Shown one piece after another: positions 46,345 through 62,365 of a stretch of DNA of 62,365 nt. Where the stretch lies: IMG/VR virus record IMGVR_UViG_3300034066_001502, positions 1-62,365 of that record; one strand, written 5' to 3'. Both the position numbers and the translations under genes were made by a program. The notes beneath the pieces were generated by a model. The model was not told where the DNA came from. It was given only the letters and a program-made list of their open reading frames with translations, and made no database searches. The DNA comes from a virus. Every line of letters starts with the position of its first letter. Position 1 is the first letter of the stretch.

Positions 46345-46977
46345 TCAACTAAGTTTTTGAAAATATTTTACAATTCTTTGACTTAATCTAACTCTTGGGT
46401 CGTCATGAGTTCTACCCAAAACATGATATGGAACTATAAACCCAAAACTTAAAAAAACTCTTCTTGAGTTAAACTCTTCGGTCCAATGTTTGTATAAAGA
46501 CGCCTCAAAACAGTATAAGTCTTTTTGTTCTATTACAGGTGAAGAACCGTCTATAAAAATTTTGTAATCTTCTGATAACACACTTATGTTACACTTATAA
46601 TTTATGTAACCATCAATTGATGCGTCATAGTGGGGTTGTATTCTACCACCTTTTTTCATATCAACCGCTTGAATAAAGATATTATCAAGGGGTAGGTTAT
46701 TTTTTTCAGATATCCTTTTAAAAATATTTTTGATAATTTGGGGGGTCTTTTGATTTGAAACTTTAGAAACTGATTGAAAGTTTGTAATGTAGTTTGTAAG
46801 TTCGGTATTTGAGATGTCTATAACACAAGATTTTCCCTTTAGTGTTTTTGAGATTTCACTTAAGTGGTAATTGGGGTCACCGTCTTCAGGATTTAATGAA
46901 TCTACCCAATCAACAATTAGATTAACCTCATCATCACTGATGAAATTTTTTACTATCTTATAATTTTCAGATTCCAT
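46345..46977 (-). CDS. 2-oxoglutarate/Fe(II)-dependent oxygenase, prolyl-hydroxylase-like
   Basis: The 210-aa product has the facial triad of 2OG-Fe(II) dioxygenases: His116 and Asp118 in QPHYDASIDG, His164 in YKHWTEEF and a 2-oxoglutarate-binding Arg at 172 or 173 in NSRRVFLSFGF. The fold order (helical N-terminus, then double-stranded beta helix) fits a prolyl-4-hydroxylase-type enzyme of about the usual size. It needs Fe(II) and oxygen. The substrate is not visible from sequence. It is the last gene of the accessory operon that also encodes Thr/Pro-rich fibre proteins and a hydroxyproline-type GlcNAc transferase homologue, which suggests hydroxylation of Pro in those proteins. It overlaps the upstream 82-aa gene by 25 nt. 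Confidence 0.85.
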   Translation of the reverse strand: MESENYKIVKNFISDDEVNLIVDWVDSLNPEDGDPNYHLSEISKTLKGKSCVIDISNTELTNYITNFQSVSKVSNQKTPQIIKNIFKRISEKNNLPLDNIFIQAVDMKKGGRIQPHYDASIDGYINYKCNISVLSEDYKIFIDGSSPVIEQKDLYCFEASLYKHWTEEFNSRRVFLSFGFIVPYHVLGRTHDDPRVRLSQRIVKYFQKLS

Positions 46978-47201
46978 TTATTAAGAAATTCTTTTGGACC
47001 AATTTCTAATTCCATAATAGATAAGTTTTTCTTAGCGTAAATAGAGTTCATTTTTTCCTCAGAACCTGCCATTGCGCAAAACCAATGAGTTGCAGGTTCT
47101 TCTCCTGTTGATGAGCAAGGTATTTTCATAACATTTTTATTTACCCAAGCTTCTCTTACTTGTTCTACCTTATCGTTTTCTGTTAAAATATTTATTCTCA
47201 T
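46953..47201 (-). CDS. Small hypothetical protein
   Basis: The 82-aa product has no recognised domain. It has Cys residues in MKIPCSSTGEEPATHWFCAM and a Trp-rich C-terminus. The N-terminus (MRINILTEND) resembles the MKIxITE leader of the genes at 37.3-38.0 kb. It overlaps the oxygenase gene by 25 nt, so the two are probably coupled. Confidence 0.65.
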   Translation of the reverse strand: MRINILTENDKVEQVREAWVNKNVMKIPCSSTGEEPATHWFCAMAGSEEKMNSIYAKKNLSIMELEIGPKEFLNKWNLKIIR

Positions 47202-61500: not shown

Positions 61501-62365
61501 TTGGCGTTGGAGTGTTAGTTGGTGTTGAAGTGTTAGTTGGTGTTTGGGTTGGTGTTTGGGTCGGCGTTTCAGTTGGTGTAGGTGTGTTAGTTGGCGTTTC
61601 AGTTGGTGTTGGAGTGTTAGTTGGTGTATTAGTTGGTGTTTGGGTTGGAGTTGGTGTTGGTAAACAAAAAGTTAAACACTCAATTATACCAACATATTCT
61701 CCCTCACCAGTTAAATTTTGTACACAATTACCCTCGACACAATCATAAGTGTTACATACACTGTCACACTCTTCAAATGTAGAAAAATATCCTGTACCAT
61801 CACCTGGGTCAAAACAATAAATACCATTACAGTCCCAAGACGGAATATACGTTGATGTAGGAGTTGGAGTTTGGGTTGGAGTTTGGGTTTGGGTTGGAGT
61901 TTTAGTTGGCGTTGGAGTTTGGGTTGGAGTTTTAGTTGGAGTTTTAGTTGGAGTTTTAGTTGGCGTTTGGCTTGGAGTTTTAGTTGGTGTAGGTGTATTT
62001 GTTGGTGTTACTGTATTTGTTGGTGTAAGGGTATTTGTTGGTGTTGGTGTATTTGTTGGCGTTTCAGTATTTGCTGGAGTTGAAGTATTTGTTGGTGTTA
62101 CTGTATTTGTTGGTGTAAGTGTATTTGTTGGGGTGGGAGTATTTGTTGGCGTTTCAGTATTTGTTGGGGTTACAGTATTTGTTGGTGTTACAGTATTTGT
62201 TGGTGTTTTAGTTGGTGTATTTGTTGGTGTGTTTGTTGGAGTATTTGTTGGTGTGTTTGTTGTCGTATTAGTCGGTGTTTGAGTGTTAGTTGGAGTGTTA
62301 GTCGGTGTTTGGGTTGGTGATAATCCTGGTGTTGGTGTGTTTGTTGGTGTAGGAGTATTTGTTGG
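58559..62365 (-). CDS. Giant Thr-Pro repeat fibre/adhesin protein, partial (5' end beyond window)
   Basis: The minus-strand frame is open from the right edge of the window to a stop at 58559, at least 1268 codons; a GTG at 60094 is only an internal Val codon. From the N-terminal side it contains (a) a Thr-Pro repeat (62365 to ~61856), (b) a Cys-rich domain (~61855-61661), (c) a very long Thr-Pro repeat (~61660-59765) with Asn, Glu, Gln or Val in the x position of four-residue units such as PTNT and PTET, (d) a beta domain (~59760-59395) including VPDKFQVFWNGNLVIDTGFRG, (e) a short Thr-Pro linker, (f) a propeller-like domain (~59297-58612) with DGTILEYDITLSPWS and NIYVCNSGGEIYNVD, and (g) a Thr-Pro tail. 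It resembles a mucin-like stalk with terminal domains. The start, total length and attachment domain are not visible. Confidence 0.85.
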   Translation of the reverse strand, partial: PTNTPTPTNTPTPGLSPTQTPTNTPTNTQTPTNTTTNTPTNTPTNTPTNTPTKTPTNTVTPTNTVTPTNTETPTNTPTPTNTLTPTNTVTPTNTSTPANTETPTNTPTPTNTLTPTNTVTPTNTPTPTKTPSQTPTKTPTKTPTKTPTQTPTPTKTPTQTQTPTQTPTPTSTYIPSWDCNGIYCFDPGDGTGYFSTFEECDSVCNTYDCVEGNCVQNLTGEGEYVGIIECLTFCLPTPTPTQTPTNTPTNTPTPTETPTNTPTPTETPTQTPTQTPTNTSTPTNTPTPTETPTNTPTPTETPTNTPTPTETPTQTPTNTPTPTNTPTPTETPTQTPTNTPTPTNTPTPTQTPTQTPTNTPTPTNTPTPTETPTQTPTNTPTPTETPTNTPTETPTNTPTETPTETPTNTPTQTNTPSPTETPTNTPTETPTNTPTETPTNTPTETPTNTPTPTETPTNTPTETPTPTETPTNTPTETPTNTPTETPTNTPTPTETPTNTPTETPTNTPTETPTQTPTQTPTETPTNTPTETPTNTPTPTNTPTPTVTPTPTNTPTPTETPTNTPTETPTNTPTETPTNTPTETPTNTPTETPTNTPTPTETPTNTPTETPTNTPTQTETPTNTPTNTPTPTQTPTPTETPTNTPTNTPTPTQTPTPTNTPTPTVTLGLTPTPTNTSTPTNTITPTNTPTPTNTPTQTPTNTPTPTNTPTQTSTNTPTQTNTPTNTPTQTPTNTPTNTLTPTPTNTPTNTPTNTPTNTVTPTQTPTNTPTQTPTNTPTPTETPTPTPTNTPTNTPTQTPTQTPTQTQTNTPTNTVTNTQTPTNTPTPTETPTNTPTETPTNTPTNTPTNTPTQTNTPTNTVTPTVTPTSPPELPIYTGETVCDIPYNINTGITGSWQITVQLGSYVGTVSSIFNAYQVPDKFQVFWNGNLVIDTGFRGNAIFNPQLNTLGYPSVVGGGFVSTSWTKSTAFPDFATVVVTAPIDSTRFYFKLGCPTVTPTPTQTPTQTPTPTNTPTNTPTPTPLPIIPLCSVLINGGVDVYAYFPSSNTNVLLGNSFPFSPDIAHTTTKLWLYDGTILEYDITLSPWSATFNRTIECPLGVNLGNGLGSITNTELISTDDTVTPNQIIVLDITTSTAVSTVIGTLGVGRYVSGDILLTTTNKILVTNEGNDGVFLSQYSYPSGTFEVEVDITSTTSQPYGLFIDSGNIYVCNSGGEIYNVDVNFPYTQTLSNISGLFVGGASQVLSCCDTNLNLPPTPTPTNTPTPTPIA
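59765..61660 (-). repeat. Long tandem repeat encoding Thr-Pro four-residue units
   Basis: About 1.9 kb of 12-bp-based repeat units, with longer tandem blocks visible (e.g. the plus-strand TTGTTGGAGTTTCAGTTGG block recurs at 60.5-61.2 kb). On the minus strand it reads continuously as Thr, Pro, Asn, Glu and Gln. It has very few C on the plus strand. Near-identical blocks suggest recent expansion or recombination. Confidence 0.9.
61661..61855 (-). other. Cys-rich two-repeat domain within the Thr-Pro fibre
   Basis: Between Thr-Pro blocks lies a ~65-residue domain with two repeats of ~28 residues: WDCNGIYCFDPGDGTGYF, then EECDSVC; and YDCVEGNCVQNLTGEGEY, then IECLTFC. Each has four Cys, suggesting two disulfides per repeat. 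I recall similar Cys repeats in Bacteroidota secreted and large-phage proteins; not checked. Confidence 0.65.
61856..62365 (-). repeat. Second Thr-Pro repeat block, open at window edge
   Basis: The same four-residue repeat type, N-terminal to the Cys-rich domain, with Lys, Val, Leu and Asn in the variable positions (PTKT, PTNT). It continues beyond the window, so its real length is unknown. Confidence 0.85.

What the first reader, a model, noticed from the sequence alone, without database searches (positions are those of the whole stretch)
46345..62365. Possible phage pathway for hydroxyproline/threonine glycosylation of mucin-like virion proteins
One same-direction region encodes a giant Thr-Pro repeat protein, a GT60-like (Skp1 hydroxyproline GlcNAc-transferase type) enzyme right after it, a GT11-like fucosyltransferase, four further glycosyltransferase-like genes or domains, a sugar-type methyltransferase, a second virion protein with a Thr/Pro tail (50955-51620), and a prolyl-hydroxylase-like 2OG oxygenase with an intact HxD...H...R site. 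In the eukaryotic Skp1 pathway a prolyl hydroxylase acts first, GT60 adds GlcNAc to hydroxyproline, then galactose and fucose follow. The same kinds of enzyme next to Pro-rich substrates suggest an analogous pathway that decorates fibre stalks. The roles of the individual genes are inference; their clustering is seen.
Basis: partly seen in the sequence, partly recalled or inferred. Interest (0 to 1): 0.9.

Follow-up and report, generated by a model that had tools for sequence, protein, structure and literature searches.

The report
Phage mucin-type protein glycosylation gene module
A family of large phages carries a sugar-adding enzyme, of a kind best known from single-celled parasites and slime moulds, next to long threonine-rich proteins and swappable sets of further sugar enzymes, which suggests that these phages coat some of their own proteins with sugar chains; the proposed proline-hydroxylation step is not supported.

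Summary
The cluster is real. The gene at 57223-58470 is a strong GT60 match (Pfam PF11397, E 3.5e-70, DxH motif), directly behind a giant Thr-Pro repeat protein. The pairing recurs: in 50 non-redundant loci the gene upstream of GT60 is T/P/S-rich in 43, against 38 of 591 other ORFs. Records drawn only by a Thr-Pro codon pattern carry GT60 in 18 of 45, against 0 of 26 controls. A conserved tandem GT-A protein (51778-53454) closes the cluster; between the two lies a cassette that can differ completely while GT60 stays nearly identical. Three cultured phages match both enzymes; for one (XacN1) a paper reports glycoproteins. The Skp1-style hydroxyproline idea fails its own test: the 2OG oxygenase is a genuine fold, but is found in 4 of 36 GT60 records (many are fragments), shows no association with GT60 in sister records (2 of 14 versus 3 of 20), and travels with a small gene and fibre-like genes. 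Thr, more than Pro, is the constant repeat residue. Best reading: mucin-type O-glycosylation, GlcNAc or another HexNAc on Thr, as by Trypanosoma cruzi GT60, then extended by variable enzymes. Acceptor, sugar and virion location are inferred, not shown.

The parts
58559..62365 (-). Giant Thr-Pro repeat protein, C-terminal 1268 aa; its 5' part lies outside the window. Proposed main glycan acceptor. The complete gene in L003 encodes 1776 aa.
   Evidence: the N-terminal 75 aa of the L003 protein have relatives in 56 of 242 loci searched
57223..58470 (-). GT60-type glycosyltransferase, proposed initiating polypeptide HexNAc (GlcNAc) transferase
   Evidence: PF11397 E 3.5e-70; 23 of 23 aligned sequences, window included, match PF11397; DSH motif in 80 of 80 related loci
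56372..57220 (-). Possible GT11-like (fucosyltransferase-type) enzyme, weak; variable cassette gene
   Evidence: PF01531 E 0.0056, below cut-off; phrog_2644 E 1.3e-4
55695..56375 (-). Cassette gene, glycosyltransferase role unproven; invariant RDLDSR (DxD-like) in 4 of 4 aligned sequences
54932..55693 (-). Cassette gene, glycosyltransferase role unproven; invariant D105 and D107 (DGD) in 7 of 7 aligned sequences
54378..54914 (-). SAM-dependent methyltransferase, cassette gene
   Evidence: PF13489 E 1.1e-7; phrog_32762 E 5.4e-54
53451..54374 (-). HtrL-like glycosyltransferase-type cassette gene
   Evidence: hhalign to the HtrL domain of 51778-53454: 97.9%, E 4.8e-13; no Pfam or PDB sequence match
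51778..53454 (-). Tandem GT-A protein: N-terminal HtrL_YibB/GT6-like domain and C-terminal GT-A domain; conserved far end of the cassette
   Evidence: PF09612 E 5e-17; AlphaFold model pLDDT 88.9, pTM 0.56; Foldseek and VIA-align matches; homolog of at least 300 aa in 58 of 66 loci with 9.9 kb downstream of GT60
50955..51620 (-). Protein with a conserved ~130-aa head (virion role inferred) and a Thr/Pro tail; second proposed acceptor
   Evidence: relatives in 105 loci (redundant), 66 with a T/P/S-rich tail and 39 without
48430..50907 (-). Fibre-like protein (by eye; no family match), linked with the oxygenase
47465..48427 (-). Fibre-like protein (by eye; no family match), linked with the oxygenase
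46953..47201 (-). Small gene immediately upstream of the oxygenase; its usual partner
   Evidence: 50 of 53 oxygenase loci with at least 3 kb upstream
46345..46977 (-). 2OG-Fe(II) oxygenase-fold protein; probably not part of the GT60 pathway
   Evidence: linkage

Best explanation
This is a phage-encoded, mucin-type O-glycosylation module. The GT60 enzyme attaches a HexNAc (most likely alpha-GlcNAc) directly to threonines of the long Thr-X-Thr-Pro stalks of fibre-like proteins, without prior proline hydroxylation. The tandem GT-A protein (51778-53454) and the enzymes of the cassette between the two (glycosyltransferases, methyltransferases, in other phages carbamoyl-, amino- and acetyltransferases) then extend and decorate the glycan. 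GT60 and the tandem enzyme are the usual core. The cassette can differ completely between close relatives, so related phages would carry different glycan 'serotypes'. Shown: gene identities, pairing of GT60 with Thr-Pro proteins, the core-plus-variable-cassette layout. Inferred: that Thr is the acceptor, that the sugar is GlcNAc, that the proteins are on the virion, that cassettes are exchanged as blocks, and the order of the steps.
For: GT60 identity and DSH motif in 80 of 80; PMC7185993 (passages) gives DxH for GT27 and GT60 and says these families share polypeptide Ser/Thr O-glycosylation. PMC9472816 (passages): T. cruzi TcOGNT1 (GT60) makes GlcNAc-alpha-O-Thr on mucin-like molecules. Upstream gene T/P/S-rich in 43 of 50 clusters against 38 of 591 other ORFs, p 6e-37. 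Records drawn only by Thr-Pro codons: GT60 in 18 of 45, against 0 of 26 drawn by unrelated patterns, p 1e-4. Thr constancy: in one locus per cluster, 30-aa segments with at least 10 Thr and at most 2 Pro number 70 (30 of 50 loci), with at least 10 Pro and at most 2 Thr 1; in T/P-rich windows 3462 of 3699 Pro have a neighbouring Thr, 5763 of 8128 Thr a neighbouring Pro. Cassette: 41 gene orders in 68 loci with both ends; 44 of 112 locus pairs with GT60 at 95% or more share no cassette family. Many cassette enzymes are sugar-related. In 50,697 phage records only XacN1, CM1 and RAS14 match GT60, and the same three are the only ones to match the tandem enzyme over at least 80% of its length. XacN1 ORF334 is the GT60, ORF330 the tandem enzyme (41%), ORF350 has two T/P/S-rich stretches. 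The XacN1 paper reports at least two glycoproteins by proteomic analysis and itself suggests that phage glycosyltransferases may make them (PMC5852040, section 10 read).
Against: 27 of 45 Thr-Pro records lack GT60 (many are fragments), and 65 neighbour ORFs from 19 such loci gave one match each to Glycos_transf_2 and Glyco_tranf_2_2 among the 25 of 41 families shown, so Thr-Pro repeats alone do not imply glycosylation. In 7 of 50 clusters the immediate upstream gene is not T/P/S-rich. 8 of 66 loci lack a tandem-enzyme homolog of 300 aa (in L082 it is cut by the contig end). In XacN1 no Thr-Pro gene is next to GT60, and its authors saw no tail fibres. The Thr argument is indirect: some Thr-rich segments are ordinary fibre sequence, and 23 of the 40 printed come from two giant proteins (L051, L057). 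No glycan, sugar, acceptor or virion location was measured for this phage; I did not see which XacN1 proteins are the glycoproteins. The host is unknown. The control set was smaller and shorter than the Thr-Pro set (median 61 kb against 89 kb) and not matched for clade, so shared ancestry may explain part of the association.
Confidence: 0.67

Rival explanations
1. Skp1-like pathway: the 2OG oxygenase hydroxylates Pro in the repeats and GT60 glycosylates the hydroxyproline, then galactose and fucose follow.
For: The oxygenase has a well-modelled DSBH fold with an intact metal site; prolyl 4-hydroxylases are among its nearest structures; it lies about 10 kb from GT60 in this window; GT60 is present in 23 of 47 oxygenase records; Pro is abundant in nearly all the stalks.
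Against: Oxygenase in 4 of 36 GT60 records, 2 of 66 loci within 10 kb, 2 of 14 versus 3 of 20 in sister records; no relative in 50,697 phage records; PF13640 in 0 of 36 and 0 of 2 (XacN1, RAS14), though that model also missed the oxygenases known to be here. It travels with the gene at 46953-47201 in 50 of 53 and with fibre-like genes in 46 of 53 loci. AlkB-type enzymes fit the fold equally well. Thr is the more constant residue.
Confidence: 0.07
2. The cassette remodels host surface polysaccharide (O antigen or capsule), and its position next to Thr-Pro fibres only reflects that both sit in a hypervariable fibre region.
For: HtrL_YibB is named after a bacterial gene near LPS genes (recalled); LPS-type families (Glyco_transf_25, FkbM methyltransferase) occur in cassettes; PMC7824862 (passages) reads polymorphic glycosyltransferase clusters of jumbo cyanophages that way.
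Against: GT60 members described in the papers read are polypeptide transferases; adjacency and reverse association with Thr-Pro proteins; glycoproteins reported for XacN1.
Confidence: 0.16
3. The enzymes glycosylate phage DNA as protection against restriction.
For: DNA is a well known target of phage glycosyltransferases (stated in PMC12619734, passages). The 2OG oxygenase resembles AlkB as much as P4H and could in principle act on bases.
Against: PF11397 is named as a GlcNAc glycosyltransferase family and its described members act on proteins; pairing is with Thr-Pro proteins. No base-modifying enzyme was assigned among the window genes scanned; the whole genome is not held and was not searched.
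Confidence: 0.04
4. The Thr-Pro stalks are simply unglycosylated flexible linkers and GT60 acts on another protein.
For: Thr-Pro repeats without GT60 are common (27 of 45 records), including proteins with signal-peptide-like starts (by eye).
Against: GT60 loci nearly always have them: 79 of 80 with at least one T/P segment, and 27 of 27 GT60 records have at least 2 motifs.
Confidence: 0.1

Closest known systems
Trypanosoma cruzi / Dictyostelium GT60 polypeptide alpha-GlcNAc transferases (mucin-type O-glycosylation)
   Same: Pfam family, DxH motif, Thr-rich mucin-like proteins, extension by further transferases
   Different: Phage-encoded, no Golgi, gene-clustered with the presumed substrate and with a variable cassette; activity untested
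Dictyostelium/Toxoplasma Skp1 hydroxyproline glycosylation
   Same: Initiating enzyme is related (PMC8724618, passages)
   Different: Needs a prolyl hydroxylase; the one proposed here is not co-conserved with GT60. The published fucose step is GT74, not GT11
Xanthomonas phage XacN1 (ORF334, ORF330, ORF350) and Stenotrophomonas phages RAS14, CM1
   Same: GT60 48%/45% identical plus the tandem enzyme; glycoproteins reported for XacN1
   Different: No Thr-Pro gene adjacent to GT60 in XacN1; other cassette genes, including a carbamoyltransferase
Mycobacteriophage virion glycosylation (Freeman et al. 2023, seen only as cited in PMC12619734)
   Same: Phage virion proteins carry glycans
   Different: C-termini of capsid and tail-tube subunits rather than mucin-like stalks; enzyme families not compared here
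Mimivirus R699 and human LH3 (tandem glycosyltransferase folds)
   Same: Best Foldseek matches of the tandem GT-A protein by E-value
   Different: About 10-13% identity, rmsd 18-20 A over both domains; LH3 also has a hydroxylase domain (recalled); fold likeness only

Membership tests
GT60 (Pfam PF11397) | Profile match over the curated cut-off | tested here: met
   237.7 bits against 21; 23 of 23 aligned sequences match
GT60 (Pfam PF11397) | DxH in place of DxD (PMC7185993) | tested here: met
   DSH in 80 of 80 loci
GT60 (Pfam PF11397) | UDP-GlcNAc:polypeptide transferase activity | not testable with these tools
   no assay
Mucin-type O-glycosylation system | Thr/Ser/Pro-rich candidate acceptors tied to the enzyme | tested here: met
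   43 of 50 upstream genes; 18 of 45 versus 0 of 26
Mucin-type O-glycosylation system | HexNAc on Thr/Ser of the acceptor | not testable with these tools
   needs glycopeptide mass spectrometry
Skp1-type hydroxyproline pathway | Proposed prolyl hydroxylase co-conserved with GT60 | tested here: not met
   4 of 36 records; 2 of 14 versus 3 of 20; holds for this oxygenase family, other hydroxylases not excluded
Skp1-type hydroxyproline pathway | Pro as the obligatory residue of the acceptor | tested here: inconclusive
   Thr-rich/Pro-poor segments far outnumber Pro-rich/Thr-poor ones, but Pro is present in nearly all stalks; indirect
Skp1-type hydroxyproline pathway | GT2/GT74 bifunctional Gal/Fuc transferase | not tested
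   GT74 was not searched; the fucosyltransferase-like gene of the window is a weak GT11 match
2OG-Fe(II) oxygenase superfamily | DSBH fold with HxD...H and Arg | tested here: met
   residues in 32 of 32 aligned sequences; fold matches
Prolyl 4-hydroxylase | Closer to P4H than to other 2OG enzymes | tested here: inconclusive
   Foldseek ranks a P4H first; VIA-align ties ALKBH6 (Z 14.1) and viral P4H (Z 14.0); sequence profile E 0.09
GT11 fucosyltransferase (56372-57220) | Profile match over the curated cut-off | tested here: not met
   16.4 bits against 23.9

The most novel reading that the evidence does not exclude
A group of large phages runs its own mucin-type O-glycosylation: a GT60 starter enzyme and a tandem extender form a constant core, Thr-rich virion stalks are the acceptors, and the block of enzymes between is exchanged between near-identical phages, giving phage particles switchable glycan serotypes in the way that O-antigen loci do for bacteria.
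Probability: 0.45. Interest if true: 0.87.

Novelty: new variant of a known kind. Interest (0 to 1): 0.74.

Why it matters
[quoted passage not shown] A phage version with presumed acceptor, starter enzyme and variable cassette in one locus would show that viruses of bacteria build mucin-like coats, offers a candidate reason for many orphan glycosyltransferases in large phages, and gives a genetically compact O-glycosylation system that can be tested in E. coli.

Tried and rejected
Hydroxyproline link: tested by co-occurrence, linkage, isolates and acceptor composition; rejected as the main mechanism. One search used 36 of the 80 GT60 records, mostly the longer ones, and included four (L004, L006, L036, L079) already known to hold the oxygenase; these four are the hits. 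L003, a fifth positive, is on a short contig and was not among the 36. One search used 47 of the 80 oxygenase loci, mostly the longer records: 23 of 47 have GT60.

PF13640 as a detector of 2OG enzymes: it found none, even in the four records that hold the window-type oxygenase, so its absence says little.

Covariation on 50 records: all 27 GT60+ records have at least 2 TPTxTPT codon motifs, 14 of 23 GT60- do (p 3e-4). But 16 of the 50 had been chosen from GT60 or oxygenase loci. In the 34 chosen only by sister polymerases and at least 80 kb long it is 14 of 14 versus 14 of 20 (p 0.03). Some GT60- records look like fragments of a GT60+ relative (G080 beside G084, from equal motif counts; inference), which blurs the contrast.

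Random-pattern control: the first pattern gave 19 loci, 3 of at least 41 kb; the second 23 more; all 26 were used. Of the two capped pattern draws (120 stretches each) only the 80 loci listed per scan were usable; every listed distinct record of at least 41 kb was tested.

First Thr-versus-Pro count (104 distinct Thr-rich/Pro-poor segments in 52 of 80 loci against 5 Pro-rich/Thr-Ser-poor in 7 of 80) used unequal thresholds; the symmetric recount gives 242/70/166/108 against 7/1/1/1 at four settings. On rechecking I lowered the main reading from 0.70 to 0.67 and raised the hydroxyproline rival from 0.06 to 0.07 and the host-polysaccharide rival from 0.15 to 0.16, because the Thr evidence is indirect and, in the printed examples, leans on few giant proteins.

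Neighbours of Thr-Pro genes without GT60: 21 of 27 such records were looked at, 19 gave neighbours, 65 of 70 neighbour ORFs were scanned.

PDB sequence searches with GT60, the single oxygenase and five profiles gave no hit below 0.001. The genome-contig scan found one GT60 relative, in a Saprospiraceae MAG contig (L444, possibly a binned phage). Paper searches for prior reports: phage + GT60 + glycosyltransferase: 0; 0; 10 of 40 listed; 0; 20 of 48 listed; titles and abstract starts of the papers listed showed no report of GT60 in phages. Only open-licence PMC papers were searched.

Cassette clustering was done twice (then 93); one search counted empty cassettes as different and its pair count is not used.

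
Full report
What the window is. The window is a 62,365-base IMG/VR virus record. It carries T4-like contractile-tail and replication genes: tail sheath, tail tube, baseplate wedge and hub, ribonucleotide reductase, DnaB-like helicase, UvsX-like recombinase and a family B DNA polymerase. 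No tRNA was found. The host is unknown.

The observation. All named genes exist on the minus strand. GT60 at 57223-58470 is certain as a family member (PF11397, E 3.5e-70; DSH motif in 80 of 80 relatives). The Thr-Pro gene is cut by the window's end; contig L003, with a GT60 100% identical, holds a whole one, 1776 aa, 37% Thr and 19% Pro. Its first 75 aa have relatives in 56 of 242 loci searched. Because Thr/Pro codons rarely make stop codons, a long ORF alone proves little; but in 199 TPTXTP units codon positions 1 and 2 of Thr and Pro do not vary while third positions do, so the protein sequence is under selection. The GT11 label is weak. The tandem protein 51778-53454 models as two GT-A domains (pLDDT 88.9, pTM 0.56). 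The oxygenase models as a 2OG DSBH enzyme, with P4H and AlkB enzymes as equally good matches.

Does GT60 go with Thr-Pro proteins? 350 IMG/VR stretches encode a GT60 relative; the best 80 loci were kept. They fall into 50 clusters at 95% nucleotide identity. In one locus per cluster, the gene directly upstream on the same strand (median gap 66 bases) is T/P/S-rich in 43 of 50, against 38 of 591 other ORFs of at least 100 aa; 46 relatives of the Thr/Pro-tail protein were counted apart (30 of 46 rich). Across all 80 loci 77 hold a long T/S/P segment by one criterion and 79 by another. In reverse, records drawn from IMG/VR only by a Thr-Pro codon pattern and at least 41 kb long carry GT60 in 18 of 45; records of the same minimum length drawn by two unrelated patterns carry it in 0 of 26, p 1e-4. 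The controls are shorter (median 61 against 89 kb) and not matched for clade. Thr-Pro repeats without GT60 exist, and their scanned neighbours are mostly ordinary phage genes. So GT60 nearly implies Thr-Pro proteins, while the reverse holds in fewer than half.

Which residue is constant? In one locus per cluster, segments of 30 aa with at least 10 Thr and at most 2 Pro number 70, in 41 ORFs and 30 of 50 loci; segments with at least 10 Pro and at most 2 Thr number 1; three other settings give 242 to 7, 166 to 1 and 108 to 1. In T/P-rich windows 94% of Pro have a Thr neighbour and 71% of Thr a Pro neighbour (3462 of 3699, 5763 of 8128). Some stalks alternate Thr with Asn, Ile and Gln with little Pro (L051), and some tails hold runs of Thr (L020). 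This fits Thr as acceptor. It is indirect: fibre proteins can be Thr-rich for other reasons, and Pro is present in nearly all the stalks.

The 2OG oxygenase. In the 53 of its 80 loci that have at least 3 kb upstream, it sits directly behind a relative of the 46953-47201 gene in 50, with fibre-like genes in 46, with a T/P segment in 34 and with GT60 in 14 (flanks end at 10 kb). GT60 records have it in 4 of 36. GT60 is found in 23 of 47 oxygenase records. In 34 sister-polymerase records it is in 2 of 14 with GT60 and 3 of 20 without. In L003 GT60 is 100% identical to the window's but the oxygenase 54%; in L004 GT60 is again 100% and the oxygenase 94%, although its cassette shares no family with L003's. 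The oxygenase and the glycosylation cassette therefore vary independently in these cases. Its target is unknown; a fibre protein is the likeliest (inference).

Core and cassette. A homolog of the tandem enzyme of at least 300 aa lies downstream of GT60 in 58 of 66 loci with 9.9 kb of sequence. In 68 loci with both ends, 1-8 genes (median 3) lie between, in 41 different orders; the 271 cassette ORFs of the 80 loci fall into 97 families (near-identical loci were not removed). Pfam matches among 78 scanned proteins (the window's 5 cassette genes, one XacN1 gene and 72 chosen from the clusters, not one from each) include FkbM methyltransferase (5), Glyco_transf_25 (5), Glyco_transf_10 fucosyltransferase (3), Glycos_transf_2 (3), carbamoyltransferase (2), DegT aminotransferase (2), PLOD GT domain (2) and Glyco_transf_11 (2, one of them the window's weak match) (25 of 49 families were shown). 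Of 112 locus pairs with GT60 at 95% or more and non-empty cassettes, 44 share no cassette family and 57 have the same set.

Isolates. Of 50,697 phage records only XacN1, CM1 and RAS14 match GT60; the same three are the only ones to match the tandem enzyme over at least 80% of its length (9 records match at all). The oxygenase has no match. XacN1 ORF334 is the GT60. The published paper names ORF328 and ORF334 as glycosyltransferases, reports at least two glycoproteins by proteomic analysis and suggests that the phage enzymes may make them (PMC5852040, section 10 read in full; other passages). Which proteins these are is in a supplement I could not read. XacN1 ORF350 (654 aa, two T/P/S-rich stretches) and ORF325 (3313 aa, one) are candidates. 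The authors saw no tail fibres on XacN1, so the stalks may sit elsewhere there.

Mechanism. From the passages read (PMC8724618; PMC9472816; PMC7185993): GT60 enzymes start mucin-type O-glycans by adding alpha-GlcNAc to Thr/Ser in T. cruzi and Dictyostelium; the related Skp1 enzyme uses hydroxyproline; some Dictyostelium mucin-type glycans are capped with fucose. The phage data fit the first use. I put the Thr mechanism at 0.67 and the hydroxyproline mechanism at 0.07. Sugar, linkage, acceptor, virion location and function (shield, adhesion or serotype variation) are inferred.

Novelty. Glycosylated phage proteins and GT60 mucin-type glycosylation are each known. Their combination, with a clustered presumed acceptor and a variable cassette, did not appear in the papers listed. 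I class it as a new variant of a known kind.

Noticed in passing
window 40377-41954 (+): Fe/Mn superoxide dismutase domains (PF00081 and PF02777, residues 50-239) inside a 525-aa ORF, so with some 285 further C-terminal residues of unknown kind.
   Followed up: no
window 46953-47201 (-): 82-aa gene whose relatives lie immediately upstream of the oxygenase in 50 of 53 loci with 3 kb upstream; no family match. A usual partner of unknown function.
   Followed up: partly
window 50955-51620 (-) and relatives L005, L009, L030, L069: The conserved head of this protein carries exchangeable C-termini: Thr/Pro tails, nothing, IPNNDII repeats, or a domain that looks like a papain-type cysteine protease (label recalled, not searched).
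   Followed up: partly
records G084, G091, G092: Two GT60 copies side by side in one record, the second more divergent.
   Followed up: no
record G125, 15212-15970 (-): GT60 match inside an 820-aa open frame, perhaps a fusion.
   Followed up: no
records G080, G081, G084, G085: Enormous Thr-Pro arrays: 584-596 TPTxTPT codon motifs per record, all on one strand but for a single motif in G084.
   Followed up: no
L082 2681-12678: An unusually long cassette of 13 ORFs after GT60, ending in the tandem enzyme cut by the contig end.
   Followed up: no
L444: The only GT60 relative found in the bacterial genome collection, 69% identical, on a 230-kb contig of a Saprospiraceae MAG; possibly a phage contig binned there, a weak host hint.
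   Followed up: no
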